A program made the translations under genes and the position numbers. Shown one piece after another: positions 13,411 through 51,042 of a stretch of DNA of 64,000 nt. The stretch is from Gonapodya prolifera JEL478. Its lineage: Eukaryota > Monoblepharomycota > Monoblepharidomycetes > Monoblepharidales > Gonapodyaceae. Where the stretch lies: positions 394,713 through 458,712 of the forward strand of contig KQ965753.1 of NCBI GenBank assembly GCA_001574975.1. Direction: 5' to 3'. The notes under the pieces are model-generated. The model did no database searches. It was not told the origin of the DNA and saw only the letters and a list, made by a program, of their open reading frames with translations. Each line of letters begins with the position of its first letter. The stretch's first letter is position 1.

Positions 13411-16400
13411 TCAATGTAAAACATCCGAGTATATGTCTAAGATACCTTCTTTGGAAAGCGCTTCTAGAAGAGTTTGCTTGGATTCATCCCCATCAATACT
13501 TTTCACAACGGCTCTCAGAGTGCCTTGATGGCCCTCCCTTCCAGCCCAACGAAAGAACTCCATCATGTGTTCTTGTCCAACTTGACCACGTCTCAGCAAA
13601 GGGAACAAAAATGTTCCCAGTGTTTTTACTGATGGTGAGACGTTAAATGATGACATTTCCGTTCGCAAGGTGGACAGTGCCGACGCGATTTGTCCCAAAC
13701 GAATCAGCCCTTCTATTCGAGAGTTCCACACATTTTCCCAAGAAAGCAACTCGGGAAATTCCGACTGGATCTCTTTCCATATCATGTCAAACTCTTTAGG
13801 CCGATTTGCATGGGCAAGGGCATCCAGCACGATGCTTGCCAACGCTTCCGAGTTGGATGTGACATTGCATGAGGACAACTCTTTAACCGTATTCCAAACC
13901 ACTAGCACACTGGACCAAAGTCCCACACGGGAGTAACAATCTGCGACTGTGGCCCATACAGCAGGCTCAGTTCGAGTATCCATTCCAATGCTCCTCATGG
14001 CAGCAAGCAAATCTTCCATTCGTTGTACATTTCCAGATTTTGCGAGATTATCCAGAAGAATGACATAAGACCCTATGTGTGGTTTCATGCCGTCTATGAG
14101 TATGGCATTGAAAGTACTTTCAGCTCCTTTCATGTCACCCCGGGAAGACTGCATTCGCATCACGTGTGTGTAGGCTTGCTGCGGAATAACCATGCCTTTG
14201 CTACGTAACATTTCCAACAGTGTAATGGCATCCACATGATCGACAGACAAAGACTTGACCGCATTGCGGAACAACGCCCTCAACGACATAGGTTTAATTG
14301 GAACCCCAAGCTTTGCCATTATTTCCGCGACTTCCAACGCTCGAGAAACCTCCCCAGTTCGCGCAAACACCTGCACAACGTAACTATCGTTCGCAGAAAC
14401 TTTGCGCACAACTGCGTCTGTTGAGTCTTTGCGAAGCTTTCCAACAAGAGCTGGATCTAGTGAGAGAATAGGCAGTTGGCTCGTGATTTCATGCATTCTC
14501 CTGATGTTTTCCGGTGAACCATCACGCCACAGAGCTTCGACAACTTTGAGCTTGTCATATACGCCAAGGTCTTTGAGGCAACGCACTCTGTGGTTACGTT
14601 CTGCATCTTCAAGGAGTTTGAGAGCCCTGTCTAAAGCCTCAGGCATCGTGTGGAGAGGCGCATCATTCATGGTTGGAAACTCTTCCTCCATGGACAAGTC
14701 ATCTTGCTCCTCAGCAGTTGCGTCCATCTGCTCCGATTGATGCAATCTGCGAGACCATGTACCACTGCCCAAAAGCGCGTCTAAGTAAAGAGAATAAGGA
14801 AATGTAAACTGAGGTTGAGATGCTGGTTTAATTTCTGACGCAGATGTGGTCTTTCTTTCCCAGTACGCTTTCTCAAAGACTCGAACAATGTCTCCTTGGC
14901 TGCCTTGCTTGGCAAGGCCATCTAGCACGTAAACGACAGATAACCAATCTGGGACACCGCCCAGTTTGTCCCTGGACTCCCATAGGACTGCCTCGGCTTG
15001 CTCAATCTCTCCCAAAGCTGCGTGAAGATAAGTGCGCAATGTAAACATTTGCGCTCTCGGGGAGCGAGCAACTGTAGCAAGAGACGGGTCGATATAGTTG
15101 GCCAAGGGTTGTTTGTAAAGCCAAGATGCGTTGTAGTCAAACCGTTCGAAAAATTCCCACCATTCCTCCATTTCCTGAACCAAGTCAAGTTTGTAGGACG
15201 GCTTCCGATCTCCACTCCTATCGTAAGCTCGAGCGGGGGGAGATCCACCTTTGAGCACCCGTATCCCACTAACTGCAGCCGCCCGTGCCACGGCGTTCAA
15301 GTGCCTCAGCACCGCCGCAAATTGAAGAAAGTTGCTGTTTCCAAGAACGCGGTTCGATGGATCTTCTTTGAAGGCACGCTCCCTCCGCATGCGAAGCTGT
15401 TTGAGGATGCTCGAGGACAAAGACAACCCGTCGACCAAAGCTTCAAACGGGAGATAAACTCTCGAAATGAAACTGATTGGAGCATAAAACATTCCTGGAT
15501 ATCCCTGTTCAGCAGTACGAATGAAGGTTGCGCGATGATCCTTCGGAGAAGATAGCAGCTGTGTGACAGAAGTGCTGGGAGGCAGGAAAAGAGCCCTGTC
15601 AGGGAACAAAGTCGAAAGCCACTCTCCAACAATACCACCGCTCGGGTTCTGTTTCGCCGACAAACACCGTTGAAACACATTGGTTGCCCACCGCCTGTGT
15701 TGAGACAGCCTCTTTTGTGCAAGGATAGAAGCGTGAGACCCCGCTCCTTGGTTTGTGCACTCCGCCGCGATAATGCCTTCCACCTGACGAGCGATTGCAC
15801 AGAGCAAGGCGGTGTAAGGTCCTTCGGTGAGGGTAACTCGTGAGCTGGGAAAAGTTTCGGCCTCGTCTAATAGCTCGTTGGCCACACGGATTTGGCCGGC
15901 GCGGCAGAGGTGAGATATAACAGTGGTGTACGAGTATGCATTTGGAGGCACTCCGAAACGAGGAAATACAGTTCGAAAGAAGAGGAGCAAGGTATGAGCA
16001 TCGAAAGGCGCGAACATTGAAGACGCTATGTGCTCCACAGGTGTGGATTGATCTTGGTGGTTCGCGGATGCTTCCTTTGGTACAATAACATCAAGACTCG
16101 TGTCGGCTGCAGCGCCTGCCGGTACTGATGGCAAAGTGCGACCGGCCAAGTCCAACAGAGCCGTCATGGTGACAACGTCAGGTTTTATCCTGAGGCGTGA
16201 AAACTCCTTGTCCACAATGTGTGCAGCGAATGCGTAAGTTTCTTTGGCTAGTTCGGAGGAGCCGCCGATACGGATTGACTTTGCTAAGCAGTCGATGACA
16301 ATGTTCAAGATGCGGAGCGTGGGAGGCACCCCGTGCTCCTCCATTTTCGATAAAAATGACTGAATTGAAGGGACAAATGATGTGTTGACTGTGTTTGTGT

Positions 16401-17498
16401 CTGCCGAGACATGGTGCCGAAGCGCAAATGCCAACGACTTGAATTCGGCTTCTGTGAGGACAGGCGTCGAAGAAATCTGCTTCTCGTTGGCGTCTTTTAC
16501 CTCTTGCCGGAATTCGTCTTTAGCACCTTCCGCAGGGTGTCCAAACATTTGAACCATGTCATCCAATACTCGCTGAACCTTCTCAACACCCCGTTTTGTG
16601 TCATCGACTGAGTCTTCTGGAAACCTTGTGGCGAAAGCATTTGCAATTCGAGAGAAATCGTTGCGTGACAGTGTGGACGCCGCGGCGGAATGGTGGTCAT
16701 TGAGAAGGTAAAGGTAGGCTGCGAGAAACGTTTGGATGGACGATGTCCAAGCGAAAGTCACCATATCATCGGTGGCACACCCCCCTCCCGGCTCTCTACT
16801 TTTCCTTCTCGTGACTCACATTTCCAAGCTTCTTCAAGACAATTTCGTGACCTTTTCGCGTCAACCATCCTCTCGGCCAGCACTCTCACAGGTCGGGGAA
16901 AGTTTTTAATTTCGCGTCTGCGATCTTCCTCAGCCTTGGCTCGGTCCGAATGAGTGAAAGGTGTACGCGATGCCGAGTTGATCCGAGGTAATGGGGTGAA
17001 GATGGAGGGAGGTCTCCACACGTGAGTTCGTGCAGTTGGGAGCCGAGCGATTCGGGGTGATGGAGACATGGGAGATGGCGCAGAAGTATTCCGACGGGCT
17101 CTTGAGCTGGTAGTCGAAGTCGAATCAGACATTACTGAGCGACAACAGCTCGCTCCCGCTCCAGGTAGGTGATCGAGTAGCAAGGATATCCGTCCAAAAC
17201 TCATCCGGGCAGCTTCCGCGAGCTTATGGGAAACTGCCATCTGATGGAATTGGAGAAAAGACAAGTAAAGACATCGACGTGCTTTTTTTTGACCAAAGCC
17301 ATCCTTGGTTGGCACTTCTTCGACGTTGATTCCACTGGGGCCATTCGACTTGCAAACGCATCCTATGTAAGAAAGCTCATTGAAATTGCGCGGTGATAGC
17401 GCTCCGATAGCGTGGAACAGCATTCTCGACGACGTTGCCATCGAAGATAAAGCCAGAGTCTGGAACAGTTGACCTCGTAGGAACTGTCCCGGTGGCAA
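13411..17498 (-). CDS. Large pentatricopeptide-repeat protein, probably mitochondrial
   Basis: Two coding exons: 17498-16820 and 16718-13411. The 101-nt intron (16819-16719) joins AAA-T to CC-TAC in frame, giving about 1330 aa; an alternative start is MATSSRMLFH at about 17441. The N-terminus is Arg/Ser-rich with few acids, consistent with a mitochondrial presequence. The C-terminal third has degenerate 35-residue helix pairs, for example AYTHVMRMQSSRGDMKGAES followed by SYVILLDNLAKSGNVQRMED and a further pair. The middle (FDAHTLLLFFRTVFPRFGVP, AYSYTTVISHLCRAGQIRVA) has the same form. PPR proteins bind organellar RNA, so a role in mitochondrial RNA processing or translation is expected; the target is unknown. 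The 3.3-kb exon has no internal stop. Confidence 0.85.
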
Positions 17499-23485: not shown

Positions 23486-26400
23486 ATGGAGAACTCGGGA
23501 ACTACAGACAGTGATCCCGCCACGAGGGCTCCTTCTCCCGCCTCTTCGCCCGCGCCAAACAAACTCGAGGAGGAATCGAGTCCCATAATCAGCGCAGAAA
23601 CGAGCGGAGACGACGACCACGCACACACGGAGAGGACGGCAACACCGGCCGATGTCGAACCGGAGGAGTGCCACGAGGACGATGAGGCTGGCGCCACGTC
23701 CCCGGTTGCAGATAAGCCCAAAGTTGCTGGAGAGCCGCCATTCGCAAAGTCGCCCGAGACCGCTGCGGATGAAGACAACGACGATGTCGTACACACTGCT
23801 TTGGAGGCGGATACGGAACACCACGAGGATGTTGTTGTGACTCTGTCTTCACCTCTGCCCGAGGCGGAAGTGACAACACCGGCCCCGAAAGACGAACCAG
23901 AGGAGTCTTCCGCTGTCGAGGACATGTCGTCTGTCACGAAATCTCCAGTTCCGCCGGTCGACGATAAAAAGGAGCAGCAGGAGGAACGGGCGCCATCACT
24001 ACCAATCAGCCCAGTCCACAAAACCCCTCTTCCCGCGACATCGACCACCACCTCCCCGCCAGCATCACTTCGCATTAACACAAGTCAAACTGTCAAAAGC
24101 GAAGCTATCCCCGAAGACTTCCCCGCCTCTCCCGCCATTCCTGTCCCCGTTGCAGCCACGTCCAGCGACACCCTTTCCTCGCTTGAAGCTGCGTTCGACA
24201 ACATTGGACTGTCGGGCCTTTCGTACGCTGACCGCGTAGAAAAGGTTCAAGAGTCGTTCATTCGCGCGGCGTCAAACGGCCAGCTCGATCGGGTTCTCCA
24301 CATACTCACCACCATCGACTTGAAGAAGTACCTGGATATAAACGCGAAGGACGAGGAGGGATCGGTACGTTCTCCACCCACCTTTCGCAACTGAATATCA
24401 CTTATCACCGTCCTCCTCGTAGACGGCTCTTATCTACGCCGCAGCCTCGGGACACGAAGAGATTGTGCACACTCTGCTGAGCGCTGGAGCGTCAGTGGAC
24501 GTAACGGATAAGGGTAAGCAGAAGAAATTCCTCCGTCTGGCGTTTTACTTCCTCGGTTCCTAACGACTGCCCCTCCTAGCCGGCTGGACCGCCCTTTCCT
24601 GGTCCTCCACCAACAACTTTTCCGCCATCTCCACCATGCTACTGGAAAACGGCGCCAAACCTCTCGCCGTCACCGAGCGTGGCTCCAAATCACGCAAATC
24701 GTCCGGCACCCCCGAGTACACGGCCTTAGAGAAACCCGTCGGACGCAACCGCGAGGGAAAGGGGCACAACCGCGCCGGAAGCGCCTATGCGTGGCGAGAC
24801 TCGGACGCTGCGCCTCAAAGTGCGGCAAGCACGCCTCCGTCAAGGTATACCCCGACGTCCCCCCGGACTCCCGGCTCGGCACACTCTGGTGGCTCGTCGT
24901 CCCCGGCGTTTGACTGGTCCACGTGTCGCCCGGACCAGATGCTGGTCTTTGACGAGCACCGCGTGGACGCTTTCATTGCTGCGTTGTCCCAGCCGTTCAC
25001 GGGAGCGCCGACGGACTCGGAGGTGGCACACCTGGTGTCGGATCCGAGACGAAACGTCGGAGCAAACGTGCTTATCTTGGCTGCGAGGTATGCGGCGAAT
25101 TATGGACCGAGAACAGCTCCGGCGAATCTATTTAGAGGATTGGAGTTTTATTTGAGGTCAATGTTTATGGTGAGTTTTGCACTCGACCCGGAACTCTGAT
25201 GTGCAAACAATTCTGACCCCTTATCCGTCATGATCGAAGTCCAACCCTCCCCGGCTCACGGATGCCCAAGTCATCACAGGCACATGCTACTGGCTCGGCC
25301 AACTGTACCAGCTGACCTACTACATCGCCCGCGACTTCACCCTCGAGTCCATCCCCAAGTACAACGCCCGGGTGCGCGTGCTTGCCGAAGATCTGTACCA
25401 CGGCTTGTGCGTGTTCCTCAAGGAGAGGGTCCGGAGGCTCGTCGAGGAATGCGTGCTGGAGTGCGACTCGGTGGAGTTTGGCGAGATCGAGTATGATACC
25501 AGGCCCGGGTGGTTGGCTCAGAGGGAGGAGGCGGCAGCGAGGAAGAGTGAGTTCATAATTCATTTGAGTAGGGTGTCTCACTCACAGGTCGCTTATGCTC
25601 CTAGCCCACGGTCGCAAACCGAGCACAACGGTGTACAGACCCGCCAGCCGTGACGCTCTCCGTCGGCACCGTGAACTCCCGTCCCTCTTCACTGGCGTAG
25701 TGACCGCGCTGGAGCACTACCGTGTCCCCCCCATGATCGGCCAGCAACTCATCCGGCAGCTCCTGTTCACCACCAACGCCGCCCTCTTCAATTCCATCAT
25801 CACACGCCGCGACATGTGCACCAGGATCCGCGCGATGCAACTGAAAACCAACATCCAAAAGACCGAGGAGTGGGTCCGAAACAACGCCCACATCGCCGGC
25901 GACCCGCGCGTGTTGCAATCGCTCACGCCCACGGTGCGGCTGCTCCAATTCCTCCAGCTCATCCACACTTGCGACTCGTTGGAGCGCTTCCTCGACTTCC
26001 AGGGTGCCGTCATCGGACCGCACCCCGATGGTCTCTCGTGGGCGCAGGCTCGCCGGGCCGTGCGCAACTACACGTACGAGGTCGGTGAGCCCCGGATGGC
26101 CGCGGAGGTGGAGGAGTATGTGGACATGTGCGCGTGGAGGATCGGCGAGGCGGCGAGGCTGGAGGAGATTGCGCCCATGGTCAAGGCGGCAGCGGGGACG
26201 GGGTCCAAGGTCGCCACGGACAAGAATACGGAAGCGGCACGCAAGTCGCCCTTGCCGGCGTCAGGACGCTCCCCTGAGCCACAGCGGTCGTCACCGACTC
26301 CATCAAGCGCGAGACAGGACACTGCTACGGGCGTCGAGCTCGTGAACGGCAATGACACACAGGCAGCTGGATTGGCCCGCGCCGATGTCAACCTTCTCCG

Positions 26401-26770
26401 CAGCGCCAGTCTCATCGAGACCCCCTCTGGCTCGGAGCGGAAGGGCAAATCCGTAGTGTACCGCCGCGTCTCGCTCGACAAGTACCGTTCGCTCCGGTAC
26501 CGGCCCAGCCACATCGCCAACGCCGTCGTGGCCGGGGAGGGAAAAGTGGACACTTCGAACGCCGAAGCCGACGCGGGCGACGTGGCGTACGTGACGGCCT
26601 ACTACAGCGGGACGCGAGATATCTACGATATCGACCTCGTGTTCTCGCCCAGAGTGCCTAGCTTCAAGGAGTGGCGCGAGAGCCTCAAGGGCGCCGAGAG
26701 CATCTCGGAGGTTCCCGTGGTGCCCGACGAGGTGCTAAGGGTTATTGATGGGCTGCGGTATTCGACGTGA
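23486..26770 (+). CDS. Ankyrin-repeat and DIL (dilute) domain protein
   Basis: Exons 23486-24364, 24423-24513, 24580-25169, 25240-about 25550, and about 25588-26770. The N-terminal 220 residues are acidic, Ser/Pro-rich and disordered. Two ankyrin-type repeats follow (TALIYAAASGHEEIVHTLLS; GWTALSWSSTNNFSAISTML), then a DIL domain (VITGTCYWLGQLYQLTYYIA ... LPSLFTGVVTALEHYRVPPM ... LFTTNAALFNSIITRRDMCT). This is the layout of fungal ankyrin-DIL proteins related to S. cerevisiae YPR089W. The DIL domain is otherwise known from class V myosin tails. The exon 4/5 junction is unresolved: the apparent donor (AAGA|GTGAGT) is phase 1 but the following frame needs phase 2. Confidence 0.85.
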
Positions 26771-36445: not shown

Positions 36446-37850
36446 AGTAGCTGATTGATGCGAGATGGAATTCTATCTATCAAAACCGATAGTGGGGCGG
36501 TGCCCTAGAGCTCACCCGTAGCGAGCTGATATTGTAATTCACGTTCAGACGTGAATTAGTTGAGGATCGCGAAGTATGGAATTCTTCTTACTAAATTACA
36601 TTGAAGACTTTTCAAGGAATTTACATGCGTTCTCTGATAAGTTTTGAGAGAGTAAATGAAAAGGCATTGATGCTCCTTTTGATCCACTGTACGTGAAACT
36701 GGAGATGGGAAACGCATTTCAAGTCTCCATCCTGATACTCAGCATTAAATAATTGAACAGCGGGTGCTTGCACGGTCGGCGTACTTGAAAACGTCCTGCA
36801 GCGAACGAAATCCCAAGTACTGCTTGAATTACTGACTTGCCGTACTATTGCTTGTCTCGTGAAACTTATCCGCGCCATACAAAACAAAGTCCGATGTGAC
36901 AATTCAAGTTTTCATTGTCAACGTGCTTGCATTCGGGGCAAAAGAGATGAGGTTACTTTGATAGTCAACATCCAAACGCGAATGTTGTGGTCGTGGAGCG
37001 ACGCTCAAGAGGTGCCATTTCCGTTTCATTGCGTCATTTGATTCGAAGTTCCATTGCCGAGATGAAAAAGCAGTTCAATTAGAATTCGTCATGGAAGGAG
37101 TTGCCTCACACGGTTCAGACGGGTGTCGCCAGTCGATAGCCAAAGCGACCCTTTTTGCGAGCTGAAGAGTCGACGGCAATGGGGAATCGATGCGCTTGGA
37201 GTGACATCCCAGACTCTTTTTCCGAGCAGGGGCATTGATCCGAGTTCGAGAGCCAAAAGGGCAAATCACGCCAAAGGGTTCCATACGCTCCAATTGCAGC
37301 ATTACCGGTCGTCAGTTGATGCCGAGAAATGCAGTGGTTGAAGAGCTTTTTGTTGATTTTCGGGTTGGACATTTCACCAATGTTCGCTTACACTTCCCAT
37401 CCCAAACGAGAGCGGGCAGCCTTGATTGTTCGGGCGGCACCTCATATGATCCTATTGGTGCGATTGATGTGAAAAAGTTGGAGTTCGAACGTGAATTGAA
37501 GAAGTTTTGTTTTTGAACGGACGGATTTCGGGTCCACCCTCGAACTGTGCCACAAACTCTCCTGTCCACAAGGTTTGAGTTCGCCCTCGCTCGCTACCGC
37601 TCGCTACGGGCTTCGCAATCATGCAACATTGCAATGGTTGGTTCTACAACTAACACGTCTTGTCTAAGAAGCATTTGGGACCTTTGTAACCTTTTGGGAG
37701 GCAAATGCCAGTTCCGCTCAGGTCACAGGCTCGATTCGGCCCGTTGAGTCCTCCTGGGGTCGTGCTTTGACTGTTGATAGCCGGAAAGCCAGAGCATCTC
37801 GAGTCCCAAGTTGATGAGCATCAGAAAATCATGGTTTCAAGCATTGACAC
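36446..37850. other. About 1.4 kb without a supported gene
   Basis: Short open stretches only, such as SYDPIGAIDVKKLEFERE ending at 37516 on the plus strand. None is linked by convincing splice sites or matches a family I know. Confidence 0.45.
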
Positions 37851-39913
37851 TCACAGAGATCCCTTCAAATTCGGGTTATTCTGCGCCTCGAAGTTAGCCA
37901 GATGAGGGACCTTGGAGACGTCAGGTATTGTGCCGTTGAGATTGTTGTTTCCAACGCGAAGATACTGCAACTTTGGCAATGTCATCAGCGACGGTGGAAT
38001 CGGACCAGAAATTCCTGGGCTGTCGCGAATTGAAATGACGTAGAGATTCTTTAAGTCACCAAGGCAAGCTGGGATTGGTCCAGTTACGTTCGACATGAAC
38101 GGCATCGACAGGATTTCAAGCTTCTTCAAATTGCAAATTTCGTTGGTGATTTCGCCGGTGAGGGGATTGTCGCCGATGGCAAGAACTTCCAGTTGGGGAA
38201 AGTAGGTGCTGATCTTCTTCAGCATGGTTGACAATGGGCCTTGCAAATTCAAAGAGAGAATTTCAAGTTTCCGAATCACGCCGTTGGCACAATCCGCAAA
38301 GCTTAAAATATGACGCGCGACCAAACTGTCAACAACAACGAGGCGTTTGAACGTTGCGATCCATGACGTACCCAGAGTTGCAACAATCATCGCCAAGAAA
38401 AAAGCCCGGCAGAAGAGACTGCAGCTTTGCGCAATCACTGATTTCAGGCTTCAAAGCTGGACCACACAGCTGCTTGTTTGGGTCCCAATGTTGCTGCATC
38501 AAGAACTTTCGACCATTCCACTGAGCGTTGTACCAAAATCCCGTGGGGTCCTCCTCAGTGGAACCACCGTAAGTGACTTTGTGACAAGCAAGGATGGTGA
38601 GAAAAAATCTGACGCTCCGACAGCTGTGCCTTTCTAACTCACGAATACATTGATCAGCTGTTGGAAGGTCCGCGGAATCGCTCAGTCAGTGAGGTGTCAA
38701 TTACGAGTACAAGTACCCACCGTTCTCGTTTCCATCAGTTGTGTTCCAGCCTCTCGCAAGACCCTTTTGAGGATAGATAGACACAGAGAGTCCCGTGTCA
38801 GCAGCTAACAAGGGATTCGGCACACAATGAAACCACACTGTCTCACCGGGTTTGTCGCACTCTCTGCAATTTCGTGCGCGATAACACTAAGCATGGAGTC
38901 TACTCCTGGATTGCCATTTGGTGATGTGAGGTGGTTGTGCCATCCACATGCGACCATCCCGCGGATGGCACCACACGCTTTTAGGTTTCCGACCCAGCCA
39001 TAGGCATAGTCTGCATAAGCAACGAGTGAGCCACGCCGGGTCCTCAGATTTTCGAGCCTACAGCTAAACGAACCTGGGAATTTGGGGTCGATCCCTGTAA
39101 CTGTTCGATTGTTTTCTTGGGCGTCTTGGAAATCTGACTGTATCGAGGTGTGCCCTTTGGACCAAAATGGGAACGAAGTCGCCCTCCACCGCATAAATCC
39201 TCGCTTGTCGCACTTACGTCCGCAATAGCCACCAGAACCGCAGTAGTCTCCCTCTGAAACGTGTTCGTCCAAGAGAACCATGTAAACTCCTCCTTCCAAA
39301 TTGGCTGGAAGCCTCCCCTGAGATATGTGGTTGTAAACTAAAGAGATTGGCAATTTTTTAGTCACATCTCTTCGAGAAAAAGGAGTTTGAAGGTTTCCAC
39401 TCACCTATTTTGGCGATGTCGTACTTTAACTGACCGTCAATGGACTTTCCTAATGAGTAATTGTCTGACACCGAAGGTCCCAGCGTAACGCTGGAGGAGA
39501 TGAATTTCCGGTTGGCTGGGTTTGTATCGTTGGACGTGTAATACCTTACGAGTGGCGGCATCAGGTCACATTTTCGATCAGTGGCAGAGCCGCTCACATT
39601 GTGTTTATTTTCCAGAATTCACTCGAGTGAAGCCCTCTGACAAAGTCATTGACGATGGCTTTGTCTGCATCGGGCCATTGTCCGTACCATACTATGCAAG
39701 CACCGGTATTGTGATCAGTCGGGGAACTTTGAACTTCTTGATCACGGTTTTCGACTCACTGATATAGACAGTTAACGGTGCAGTTAATGACCTCCGACCA
39801 GGTGTAAATGTGATGTTGTTCCTCGTAGGGTTGAGTGCTTCTGCGTCTCCCCGCCCTGCAAGGACGAACAAGCACAACGCAGCTACGAAGCCAAGAAAGG
39901 CCATGCGAGCCAT
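37851..39913 (-). CDS. Secreted EXORDIUM-like (phosphate-induced protein 1) domain fused to leucine-rich repeats
   Basis: Nine exons: 39913-39760, 39691-39598, 39544-39405, 39337-39218, 39010-38861, 38804-38721, 38657-38643, 38576-38372, 38301-37851; 1413 nt, 470 aa. Signal peptide MARMAFLGFVAALCLFVLAG. The EXO/Phi-1 domain (about residues 45-300) shows VYIIWYGQWPDADKAIVNDF, YSLGKSI, YMVLLDEHVSEGDYCGSGGY, GWVGN, NPGVDSMLSVIAHEIAE and FWYNAQWNGRKFLMQQHWDP. The exon encoding that C-terminal motif continues without a break into a Cys-containing cap (SDCAKLQ ... DDCCNSGFADCANG) and four or five plant-type LRRs (LEVLAIGDNPLTGEI; LQYLRVGNNNLNGTIP). A cell-wall or surface role is likely; partners unknown. 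Confidence 0.88.
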
Positions 39914-40411: not shown

Positions 40412-42457
<2,046 letters not shown>

Positions 42458-43122
42458 CGTGTGGTTTCTGGGGTGATGAATGTGGTGATGGAGAGATGTC
42501 GGCAAGTTTACCTCCAGAGTGACAACCATGCCGGGCCACAATGACGACTCCGCCTTATCTCTTCATCACCGAAAAATACGCGATAATACCCATTTAATTG
42601 TAGTGTCCGAAATCTCGCAGCATGGTGCATCGATGAACAGCAATTGAAGCATGGTAGAGAGAGCAGTGGATATGAGTATGACAACATCCTTTCAGACGAG
42701 AAAAGAACGCTTTACAAACATCTCTGAATCAACTAATGGTGATGTTTCACTTTGTTGCTATAACTGCGGCGGCAATCAATTCCGACAGTCCCGCCCCTGT
42801 ATCGATCTAACATGGCGAAAGCGGGAAGTTACTTCACAACACATATGAAAGTCACCGCGTACATCTACGAACATGACGTCGCGAAGGTATAAGCAGACTA
42901 AAGGCATAAGTTATTGCTTTTTCGGTGAGTGATTCTAGCGTTTTCCTCGTTGACGAAGTATGTCAAACCATGTTTCCAGGGCTTCCACAAACAGTCTTGA
43001 TGTCACTATATATCTCTTTGTTTTGCGAAGTGTATTTTAGTGGGGGACCAAGTGTGAACAAACAGTTGTTGTGCCGATGAATTTGGTCAGCCGAACACCA
43101 ACCCGGCACCAATAGTCCCGCA
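42458..43122. promoter_or_regulatory. Divergent intergenic region, enolase and Ser-rich protein
   Basis: 665 nt between two genes transcribed away from each other, so it should contain both promoters. I see no unambiguous core element or coding exon. Confidence 0.4.
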
Positions 43123-49662: not shown

Positions 49663-51042
49663 TTACCGCCTCGCGTCATCTCTCCTGCCTGATCGCTTTT
49701 GCTCCTGCTCCCTCGACCTAGACCTCGACTTCTCACGTGAATAGTCCTTTCCAGAAGAATAACGGTCGCCCCGCCGGTCTCGAGCGTCACCAGATCGGTA
49801 GTCTCGGGGACTTCGACTCCGACTTCGACTTCGTCGGCGATCCTCGTCAAGGTCCCGACCAGACCCGGTCCTTTTCGAGTCTGTTTCCAAATACCGAGAA
49901 GGGCCAAGCTCCTCACGTCGAGGTGGGGAGCTATCACGAGCACGAGACCGATACGGCTCGTAACGTTCTCCGTCACTCCGTCGCTCCCTATCACCGCGGT
50001 CTCTGGGCTCCATCCCACCATGCCGTTTTCGCTCCGGTGAGTTCCTTCTTCGAGGAGGCGGCGACGGTGAGCGGGGGCGCTTTCCGCGATCCCACTCCCG
50101 CTCTTTCGTGGGCGCTTCTCGCATGGACTTGGGAGACGCACCTCGCTCAGCTGTGGGTGAGGCGCGGTGCTTTTTAGAGAGTTTGAACTGCTTCTTCTTT
50201 TCTTTACGCTGGAGTATCGCCGCAGGTGACGATTGGAAGGTTGACGCATCAGCAACCTCGTTCTTCTCGTGCAGAGCTACACACGGACTCACCCTTTTCT
50301 TCTTGATCTTTTCCACCATGTACGCATACATGGGATCTTCCGGATCCAAACCCTTGAGCGCGGGGTCGTTCGGGTCCACATCGCTGTCCTCCTCCAATCC
50401 ACCCTCCTGCGCCATAATCTCCGCGTCTCCCGGCAAGATTCCCATGGGCGCTATCCTCGGCTTGGGCTCTTCCTCCTGCTCCTCCTCGGTGGGGTTACCG
50501 TCCTTGTCCAGCTTCCGCTTCTTCTGGGGCGGTTTGTAGTCTTTCACGTGGTCGACCCGTATCGTCCGGCCAGCCAGCTGCGACCCGTTGAAGTTGTCCA
50601 CGGCCAGGACGGTCGACCGCTGGTCTTCGTAGCAGATGAAGCAGAACCCGCGGCTCTTGCCCGTGGCTTTGTCGCGGACGAGGTTGATGTCCACGATTTC
50701 GCCGAATCTGAACGAGCGAGGGTGGGGACGGCGAAAGGAGGCACCAGACGACGTCGACAGCCGTTCAAAGAAAGTTTCCCGTCCATGTATTTCTCCCAGA
50801 CAACTTCACTCACTGTGAAAATATGCAAATCGCGTCTCCCTCACTGAACTCAAAGTCCAATCCTCCCGCAAAAACCCACGCCGAGTTCCTGTACTCATCA
50901 TGCCACGACGCTCCCCCGTCGATAGCCCTGTCAAGCTCCTTGGCGTTGATGCGTTGAATTTCTTTGACGACGCTGCAGAGGGGGTAGTTCTTGTCAGGTC
51001 TGCGACTCGCTCTGAGTAAGAGGACAGGCAGACTTACTTCAT
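49663..51042 (-). CDS. IST3: Ist3/RBMX2-like RRM splicing factor with RS-type tail
   Basis: Subunit of the RES complex, which acts with the U2 snRNP during pre-mRNA splicing. Coding starts with a 5-nt exon (51042-51038, ATG AA) joined to CGTCGTC, giving [20 protein letters not shown], the exact family opening. The RRM follows: [40 protein letters not shown] (RNP1 GFCFICYED), then [15 protein letters not shown]. The rest is Arg/Ser/Asp-rich and much longer than in yeast. A GTGAGT...CAG intron (50292-50209, 84 nt) lies in the tail; spliced or not, the frame continues. Nuclear. Confidence 0.9.

What the first reader, a model, noticed from the sequence alone, without database searches (positions are those of the whole stretch)
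37851..39913. EXORDIUM/phosphate-induced domain fused to plant-type LRRs in one secreted protein
The exon carrying the EXO C-terminal motif (FWYNAQWNGRKFLMQQHWDP) runs directly into a Cys-rich cap and leucine-rich repeats of the L-x-G-x-IP type, and all nine exons add up to an open 470-aa frame. EXO proteins are known mainly from plants, some bacteria and a few fungi as stand-alone secreted proteins. The fusion suggests a cell-surface recognition or wall-remodelling role.
Basis: partly seen in the sequence, partly recalled or inferred. Interest (0 to 1): 0.75.

Follow-up and report, generated by a model that had tools for sequence, protein, structure and literature searches.

The report
EXORDIUM domain fused to leucine-rich repeats
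A flagellated fungus carries a family of predicted secreted proteins that join a plant-growth-type EXORDIUM domain, here with an enzyme-like metal-site motif, to a recognition module like those of plant receptors, which suggests an enzyme aimed by a built-in binding part.

Summary
Best model: eleven exons, 39913-37650 minus strand, 536 aa: signal-peptide-like start, whole EXO/Phi_1 domain (Pfam E 1.2e-29), Cys cap, plant-type LRRs, C-terminal Cys cap. The same genome holds 16 related loci. Of all 17, 13 have both halves and nine of these form a stop-free set, differing down to 37% identity in EXO and 24% in LRR. One 199-205-nt exon, phase 1 to 2, spans the junction in 10 of 17. dN is below dS in both halves. 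No intact EXO-only copy was found. The LRR concave face is the most variable part. Bacterial EXO relatives showed no LRR where checked, and 78 of 79 readable ones carry HExxE. Six of nine stop-free fungal copies keep HExxE and five keep a CGxH histidine; one clade has lost both. A confident model of a bacterial EXO has metzincins as leading but sub-threshold fold matches. Best reading: a secreted metal-site EXO domain, perhaps a hydrolase, aimed by a diversified LRR. Expression, secretion and activity are untested, and no other eukaryotic genome could be searched, so how widespread this is stays open.

The parts
39760..39913 (-). exon 1: ATG, signal-peptide-like segment, start of EXO domain
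   Evidence: hydrophobic N-terminus and no later hydrophobic segment by Kyte-Doolittle; no signal-peptide predictor was run
39598..39691 (-). exon 2, EXO domain
39405..39544 (-). exon 3, EXO domain
39218..39337 (-). exon 4, EXO domain
39074..39154 (-). exon 5 (81 nt), missed at first; with exon 4 encodes CGRH (residues 168-171)
   Evidence: found with two independent queries at three penalties; an 81-nt exon at the same place in C87b, C69 and C19. Its donor GTTCGT is weak. The region is open in frame, so retention of intron 4 or 5 would leave the frame open
38847..39010 (-). exon 6, EXO domain with HExxE motif
38862..38876 (-). HEIAE motif, residues 242-246
   Evidence: matches HExxE of bacterial EXO relatives
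38721..38763 (-). exon 7, EXO domain
38643..38657 (-). exon 8 (15-nt micro-exon); with exon 7 encodes ENADQC (residues 264-269)
   Evidence: a 15-nt exon is modelled in 12 of the 16 other loci
38372..38576 (-). exon 9, junction exon: EXO C-terminal motif plus Cys-rich LRR N-cap (..DCAKLQ..GDDCCNS)
   Evidence: 199-205 nt, phase 1 to 2 in the window gene and 9 of 16 other loci
37855..38301 (-). exon 10: rest of N-cap and plant-type LRRs
   Evidence: single-sequence AF2 of this exon gives six short strands 21-28 residues apart, low confidence (mean pLDDT 62)
   Evidence: acceptor CTCGAG, supported by both independent queries
38464..39787 (-). Phi_1/EXO domain (residues 43-308, exons only)
   Evidence: E 1.2e-29
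37797..38457 (-). N-cap and LRR region (residues 311-488, exons only)

Best explanation
It is one gene of a paralogous family, in a flagellated fungus, whose products are predicted to be secreted (the window protein has a hydrophobic start, no later hydrophobic segment, 18 Cys and 7 N-glycosylation sequons) and to join two working halves. The EXO half is a Phi_1 domain of the bacterial-like type with CGxH, HExxE and ENxDxC motifs. I infer that these form a metal site, possibly of a hydrolase acting on extracellular protein or wall polymer. The LRR half (N-cap, about six plant-type repeats, C-cap) is a binding module whose concave face has diversified between copies; I infer that it aims or anchors the EXO half at particular targets outside the cell. 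Shown by computation: the fusion, its conservation in the genome, constraint on both halves, the motifs and their joint loss in one clade, the variable LRR face. Inferred: secretion, metal, catalysis, targets.
For: Gene model and domains. Family in the same genome: 17 loci, 13 with both halves, nine of them a stop-free set. Identity among the nine falls to 37% in EXO and 24% in LRR with the same order of parts. Junction exon of 199-205 nt, phase 1 to 2, in 10 of 17. NG86 dN/dS, window vs C87b: EXO 0.151/1.68, cap 0.112/0.882, LRR and C-cap 0.258/1.261; C137 vs C84b: EXO 0.158/0.753, LRR and C-cap 0.143/0.784. EXO tree and cap+LRR tree share four clades. The three EXO copies without LRR all carry stops, and two of them hold the start of the cap. 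LRR half matches plant LRR receptor ectodomains in the PDB. Concave LRR positions: mean pairwise identity 0.170 against 0.354 at other non-consensus LRR positions, 1 of 20,000 shuffles. Bacterial EXO: HExxE in 78 of 79 readable loci; in the 46-row alignment the CGxH His, the HExxE His and first Glu are 46 of 46, second Glu 45 of 46. Fungal: HExxE in 6 of 9, CGxH or CAxH in 5 of 9, both absent in C137, C84b and C156. AF2 model of a bacterial EXO, mean pLDDT 89.7, has HExxE inside its helix 175-193; leading Foldseek hits include adamalysin II (E 0.026, prob 0.91) and BaP1 (E 0.074, prob 0.84).
Against: No transcript or protein evidence. Foldseek found nothing at E <= 0.001, and unrelated folds are mixed in among the weak hits. 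The metzincin signature HExxHxxGxxH (recalled) is absent. A sequence profile search of the PDB found no convincing relative. Three of nine stop-free copies have lost HExxE and CGxH but keep both halves, so catalysis cannot be essential to the whole family; C84a keeps HExxE but its model lacks the CGxH His, and ENxDxC is altered in C84a and C1. The bacterial Asp of TDP (46 of 46) is Asn in the window gene. Retention of the junction intron would give a 352-aa EXO-plus-cap product, so an EXO-only isoform is possible. Retention of intron 4 or 5 would leave the frame open at 557 aa, so that part of the model is less certain. Within the C137/C84b/C156 clade alone the concave-face test is not significant (P 0.10), and those residues are surface-exposed, so relaxed constraint could explain part of it. 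Five of the nine stop-free models begin after the signal region and show no hydrophobic start.
Confidence: 0.5

Rival explanations
1. The EXO half is not an enzyme but a sugar- or wall-binding growth-signal domain, as assumed for plant EXORDIUM; the conserved His and Glu are structural or hold calcium. The LRR adds a second binding surface, and the protein is an adhesin or wall-scaffold protein.
For: Three of nine stop-free copies lost HExxE and CGxH yet keep the architecture; no significant fold match; the mode of action of plant EXO is called unknown in PMC3691544 (passages).
Against: CGxH, HExxE and a downstream E/D motif are shared by bacteria of several phyla and this fungus, CGxH and HExxE are lost together in one clade, and HExxE sits in a helix of the bacterial model; this fits a metal-site enzyme better than a scaffold.
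Confidence: 0.33
2. Two neighbouring genes, or an EXO-only transcript, wrongly joined by a spliced model.
For: No RNA data; retention of the junction intron gives a clean 352-aa EXO-plus-cap ending. My first model was itself wrong in two places.
Against: One exon encodes both the EXO end and the LRR cap in the window gene and 9 of 16 other loci, with fixed phases; dN below dS on both sides; no intact EXO-only gene found in the genome at this sensitivity.
Confidence: 0.04
3. The family is a decaying, amplified secreted family with no single function; most copies are on the way to pseudogenes.
For: 8 of the 17 loci carry stops, lack a half or lack a conserved stretch in my models; the damaged pair C87a and C19 looks unconstrained in the LRR part (dN 0.173, dS 0.207).
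Against: Nine copies are stop-free at old divergence, with dN below dS in the pairs of them compared wherever dS could be computed.
Confidence: 0.1

Closest known systems
EXORDIUM / PHI-1 family (Pfam PF04674, Phi_1), plants
   Same: Whole Phi_1 domain, secreted. The conserved-residue list for plants in PMC8481617 (passages) holds E[2] and C[7], which I read as the E and C of ENADQC because the spacing is the same
   Different: Plant proteins are described as almost wholly the Phi_1 region of about 300 aa (PMC2661892, passage); no LRR is mentioned. I recall, untested, that plants read ASLLAGTATNP where this protein reads AHEIAESATNP, so they lack HExxE
Bacterial stand-alone Phi_1 proteins (Gemmatimonadota, Acidobacteria, Proteobacteria and others)
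   Same: CGxH, HExxE and E-x2-D-x-C motifs, order of parts of the EXO domain
   Different: No LRR seen: 76 of 79 readable frames end within 14 aa of the domain (one, L071, at a contig edge); a strict LRR pattern hits 0 of 79; Pfam on nine of the ten frames with long extensions found no LRR model at E <= 0.01. Upstream parts of the other frames were checked by the pattern only
Plant LRR receptor ectodomains (FLS2, GSO1, BRI1, SERK)
   Same: L-x-G-x-IP repeats
   Different: Here short, no transmembrane segment seen, no kinase, and a catalytic-looking N-terminal partner
The same fungus's LRR proteins (C47, C94, C41, C12, C187, C77, C54, C11)
   Same: A similar N-cap with a CC pair, then plant-type LRRs (by eye); a likely source of the LRR half
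   Different: No EXO domain seen in the open frames; seven of the eight have a hydrophobic segment and tail after the repeats (by eye)
Metzincin metallopeptidases (adamalysin, BaP1, astacin)
   Same: Leading fold matches of the bacterial EXO model; HE in a helix
   Different: Sub-threshold match; HExxE instead of HExxHxxGxxH (recalled)
'Phosphate-induced proteins (Tribe 8)' of Batrachochytrium and relatives (PMC9926174, passages)
   Same: One of the ten largest secreted groups in four other flagellated fungi, of the same family name
   Different: The passages name no LRR; those sequences could not be searched here, so the architecture there is unknown

Membership tests
Phi_1 / EXORDIUM (PF04674) | Whole-protein score above Pfam cut-off over nearly the full model | tested here: met
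   104 bits against 25; model positions 9-273 of 276
Phi_1 / EXORDIUM (PF04674) | Protein consists almost wholly of the Phi_1 region, as described for plants | tested here: not met
   About 228 further residues of cap, LRR and C-cap; plant layout from a passage of PMC2661892. A family member by domain, in a new architecture
Plant-type extracellular LRR protein | L-x-G-x-IP repeats with Cys-rich caps | tested here: met
Plant-type extracellular LRR protein | Secretion | tested here: inconclusive
   Hydropathy only
LRR receptor (kinase or receptor-like protein) | Transmembrane segment or kinase | tested here: not met
   No Kyte-Doolittle segment above 1.6 after residue 40 in 9 of 9 stop-free copies; no kinase in the Pfam scan of the window protein
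Metzincin metallopeptidase | HExxHxxGxxH/D zinc motif (recalled) | tested here: not met
   HExxE instead, in the window gene and 78 of 79 bacterial loci
Metzincin metallopeptidase | Metzincin fold | tested here: inconclusive
   Leading hits metzincins, prob 0.91 and 0.84, but no E <= 0.001; the model is of a bacterial relative, not the window protein
Metzincin metallopeptidase | Metal-dependent proteolysis | not testable with these tools
   needs bench work

The most novel reading that the evidence does not exclude
EXORDIUM-family proteins descend from a secreted zincin-like hydrolase with a CGxH plus HExxE site. Bacteria and some copies in this fungus keep the site; plants and the C137/C84b/C156 clade have lost it and work as pseudo-enzymes. 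This fungus has built a repertoire of LRR-guided versions whose recognition faces diversify, in effect a set of secreted enzymes and pseudo-enzymes each aimed at its own target.
Probability: 0.2. Interest if true: 0.85.

Novelty: new variant of a known kind. Interest (0 to 1): 0.6.

Why it matters
The molecular action of EXORDIUM, a plant growth regulator, is described as unknown (PMC3691544 passage). A branch of the family that carries an enzyme-like site, with a natural control clade that lost it, makes that question testable. The fusion also shows plant-type LRR recognition modules in a flagellated fungus joined to a catalytic-looking partner rather than to a receptor, with diversification on the binding face. 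If the architecture proves widespread in flagellated fungi, it would be a candidate tool for attachment to, or digestion of, outside material.

Tried and rejected
Chance or splicing artefact for the fusion: rejected by the paralogue family and the junction exon. My own ten-exon, 500-aa model is rejected in favour of eleven exons and 536 aa; the figures, made on first models, are replaced by those. An early conclusion, that close copies lack the CGxH histidine, was an artefact of the missed exon and is withdrawn except for C84a.

First genome contigs and viral-contig scans with the fungal EXO alignment gave 32 and 121 pattern matches and no confirmed relative. Bacterial EXO was then reached through a tblastn hit on a Gemmatirosa plasmid and a second scan with its two proteins. 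The viral scan is weak evidence of absence.

PDB sequence search with the EXO profile: one chance-like hit, E 0.17. NCBIfam: four weak LRR matches far below their cut-offs. A weak match of one bacterial EXO to a microbial transglutaminase model (E 0.0019, below cut-off) was not followed. LRR half against plasmids: no match. Single-sequence fold of the LRR exon was poor.

Papers: EXORDIUM with leucine-rich repeat, fungi and fusion, 0; PF04674, 7; phosphate-induced protein with chytrid, 1; EXORDIUM with chytrid, 0; Gonapodya with leucine-rich repeat, 2, listing only; Phi_1, chytrid, secreted, any two, 428 with 10 listed; phosphate-induced protein 1 with fungi and secreted, 4, listing only; EXORDIUM with metalloprotease, 7, listing only; EXORDIUM with NPFG, 0; six terms, any three, 65 with 20 listed. 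Passages were seen in PMC2661892, PMC3691544, PMC8481617 and PMC9926174; no paper was read whole. Nothing that I saw reports the fusion or a metal site in EXO. These searches cover the open library only, and supplements were not available.

Full report
What is there. On the minus strand, 39913-37650, eleven exons with GT..AG introns of 53-83 nt give a 536-aa protein. Pfam finds Phi_1/EXORDIUM over residues 43-308 at E 1.2e-29 and LRR_1 at E 5.7e-5; other LRR models match below their cut-offs. The order is: hydrophobic start, EXO, Cys-rich N-cap (..DCAKLQ..GDDCCNSG..DCANG..), plant-type repeats, C-terminal Cys cap (CSGFP...CDLSGTGICLPKGYKGPKC). No hydrophobic segment follows the start. My first hand model had ten exons and 500 aa. 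Two related proteins, C119 and C1, each aligned to the window at three intron penalties, then showed an 81-nt exon at 39154-39074 and a last acceptor at 37797. The mended model raises the Phi_1 score from 98.5 to 104 bits. Searches were made with first-model proteins of the window gene or its relatives, or pieces of them.

The genome. The window lies in a 47.56-Mb assembly of 207 contigs. A radial-spoke family (best E 8.7e-15) and chitin synthase (best E 2.6e-176; 4 of 14 controls, bacteria, also ring for that model) indicate a flagellated fungus. The species was not identified. Size and G+C remind me of the monoblepharid Gonapodya (recalled, untested).

A family. tblastn with the two halves and the Pfam model located 16 further loci, which I modelled with a spliced aligner of my own (remade). 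Of the 17 loci, 13 have both halves: the window gene, C22a, C87a, C87b, C1, C84a, C84b, C69, C119, C19, C156, C137 and C33. Nine form the stop-free set: the window gene, C87b, C1, C84a, C84b, C69, C119, C156 and C137. C87a reads without a stop only in a model that leaves out the HExxE stretch, and is counted as damaged. C22a, C19 and C33 carry stops. Three loci have EXO without LRR (C23b, C21, C53); all three carry stops, C21 and C53 hold the beginning of the cap, and I saw no LRR remnant downstream of C23b. C22b has LRR only, with one stop. So no intact EXO-only gene was found; divergent copies may have been missed, because only the best candidates are scored. Several models lack a start (five of the nine begin after the signal region) and some (C84a, C84b, C69, C1) are irregular: C84b lacks part of the cap.

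Why the fusion is not a prediction error. Among the nine, pairwise identity falls to 37% in EXO and 24% in LRR with the same order of parts. The exon that holds both the EXO end and the N-cap is 199-205 nt with entry phase 1 and exit phase 2 in 10 of 17 loci: the window gene, C87b, C119, C137, C84b, C156, C87a and C33 at 205, C84a at 202, C69 at 199. It differs in C1 (119 nt, phase 0 to 2), C19 (195, exit phase 1), C21 (232) and C22b (71), and none was recognised in C22a, C23b and C53. NG86 dN/dS: window against C87b, EXO 0.151/1.68, cap 0.112/0.882, LRR and C-cap 0.258/1.261; C137 against C84b, EXO 0.158/0.753, cap 0.096/0.371, LRR and C-cap 0.143/0.784. Several dS values are near saturation and three could not be computed. 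In the damaged pair C87a and C19 the LRR part looks unconstrained (0.173/0.207). Trees of the EXO part and of the cap+LRR part, on the 13 loci, share the clades window/C22a, C69/C84a, C87a/C19 and C137/C33/C84b/C156; the order among these clades differs with weak support. One fusion followed by duplication is the simplest history.

The LRR half. It matches plant LRR receptor ectodomains in the PDB; best E-values are inflated by repeats. The same genome encodes other LRR proteins with a similar N-cap and no EXO seen (eight read of nine fetched), so the LRR half was probably home-grown. Concave-face positions (20) have mean pairwise identity 0.170 among the nine copies, against 0.354 at 45 other non-consensus positions of the repeats; 1 of 20,000 shuffles reaches that. 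In subsets P is 0.0014, 0.0135 and, for the C137/C84b/C156 clade, 0.10. I assigned the positions by eye from the repeat consensus. It suggests diversified binding; it is not a test of positive selection.

The EXO half. One scan of bacterial and archaeal genomes gave 282 relatives, of which the best 80 were kept; 79 could be read and one (L068) could not. 78 of 79 have HExxE, the exception being L119; 79 of 79 have an E..D.C motif, but NADKCAW was one of the two search patterns, so HExxE is the unbiased one. 76 of 79 frames end within 14 aa of the domain; longer are L099 and L109 (206-207 aa; in L109 a Pfam Ig model at E 2.2e-4, just under its cut-off) and L126 (31 aa). A strict LRR pattern hits 0 of 79, and Pfam on nine of the ten frames with long extensions (L126 left out) found no LRR model at E <= 0.01. 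In a 46-row alignment (46 of the 80) the CGxH His, HExxE His and first Glu are invariant, second Glu 45 of 46, and E207, D210 and C212 invariant. The window protein has CGRH at 168-171, HEIAE at 242-246 and ENADQC at 264-269. HExxE is kept in six of nine stop-free copies (window, C87b, C69, C84a, C119, C1), CGxH or CAxH in five (the same without C84a); C137, C84b and C156 have neither. ENxDxC is full in window, C87b, C69 and C119 and altered in C1 and C84a. AF2 of an Armatimonadetes relative, from the 46-row alignment, gave mean pLDDT 89.7 and pTM 0.88, with HExxE in its helix 175-193. Foldseek against the PDB found nothing at E <= 0.001; leading matches are largely metzincins: adamalysin II (E 0.026, prob 0.91, TMt 0.41), fragilysin (0.04), BaP1 (0.074, prob 0.84), with ADAM10 and astacin lower and unrelated folds mixed in. 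I take this as a lead, not a proof, and it concerns a bacterial relative.

Mechanism. Best supported: a secreted EXO domain with a metal-type site, aimed at extracellular targets by a diversified LRR. Shown: architecture, conservation, constraint, motifs. Inferred: secretion, metal, catalysis, target. The main rival is a non-enzymatic wall-binding or growth-signal protein, favoured by the clade that lost the motifs.

Against what is known. EXO is described in plants as a secreted protein of about 300 aa, with one bacterial homologue and none then found in fungi (PMC2661892, passage); its mode of action is called unknown (PMC3691544, passage). In Batrachochytrium and relatives 'phosphate-induced proteins' are among the ten largest secreted groups (PMC9926174, passages); whether they carry LRRs could not be tested. 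My ten paper searches showed no report of the fusion. I file it as a Phi_1 member in a new architecture: a new variant of a known kind.

Noticed in passing
window 40412-42562 (minus): An enolase gene in several exons lies directly upstream of the EXO-LRR gene in the same orientation (Enolase_C E 2.8e-40 on one open frame; the other exons were judged by eye).
   Followed up: partly
window 13414-16815 (minus): 1134-aa open frame of pentatricopeptide repeats (PPR_2 E 1.4e-19).
   Followed up: partly
window 25571-26767 (plus): DIL domain (E 5.1e-18); two open frames just upstream (23.5-25.2 kb) gave no Pfam match at E <= 0.001, though by eye they may hold ankyrin-like repeats.
   Followed up: partly
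window 49666-50805 (minus): RRM protein with a long Arg/Ser-rich tail (RRM_1 E 1.5e-11).
   Followed up: partly
L132-L139 (C47, C94, C41, C12, C187, C77, C54, C11): Eight LRR proteins with an N-cap holding a CC pair; seven have a hydrophobic segment and tail after the repeats, and three (L135, L136, L137) share a tail stretch like PHWAF..L.G (by eye). Possibly a fungal LRR receptor family without kinases.
   Followed up: no
L099, L109: Two bacterial EXO proteins carry about 206 extra residues after the EXO domain; in L109 a Pfam Ig model matches at E 2.2e-4, just under its cut-off: EXO may be fused to other modules elsewhere.
   Followed up: partly
window 38371-38302: Retention of this intron would end the protein at 352 aa just after the N-cap, a possible EXO-only isoform.
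   Followed up: partly
window 27.8-29.8 kb: Two open frames on the plus strand share a Leu/Pro-rich stretch (by eye); a 33-nt tandem repeat overlaps the second.
   Followed up: no
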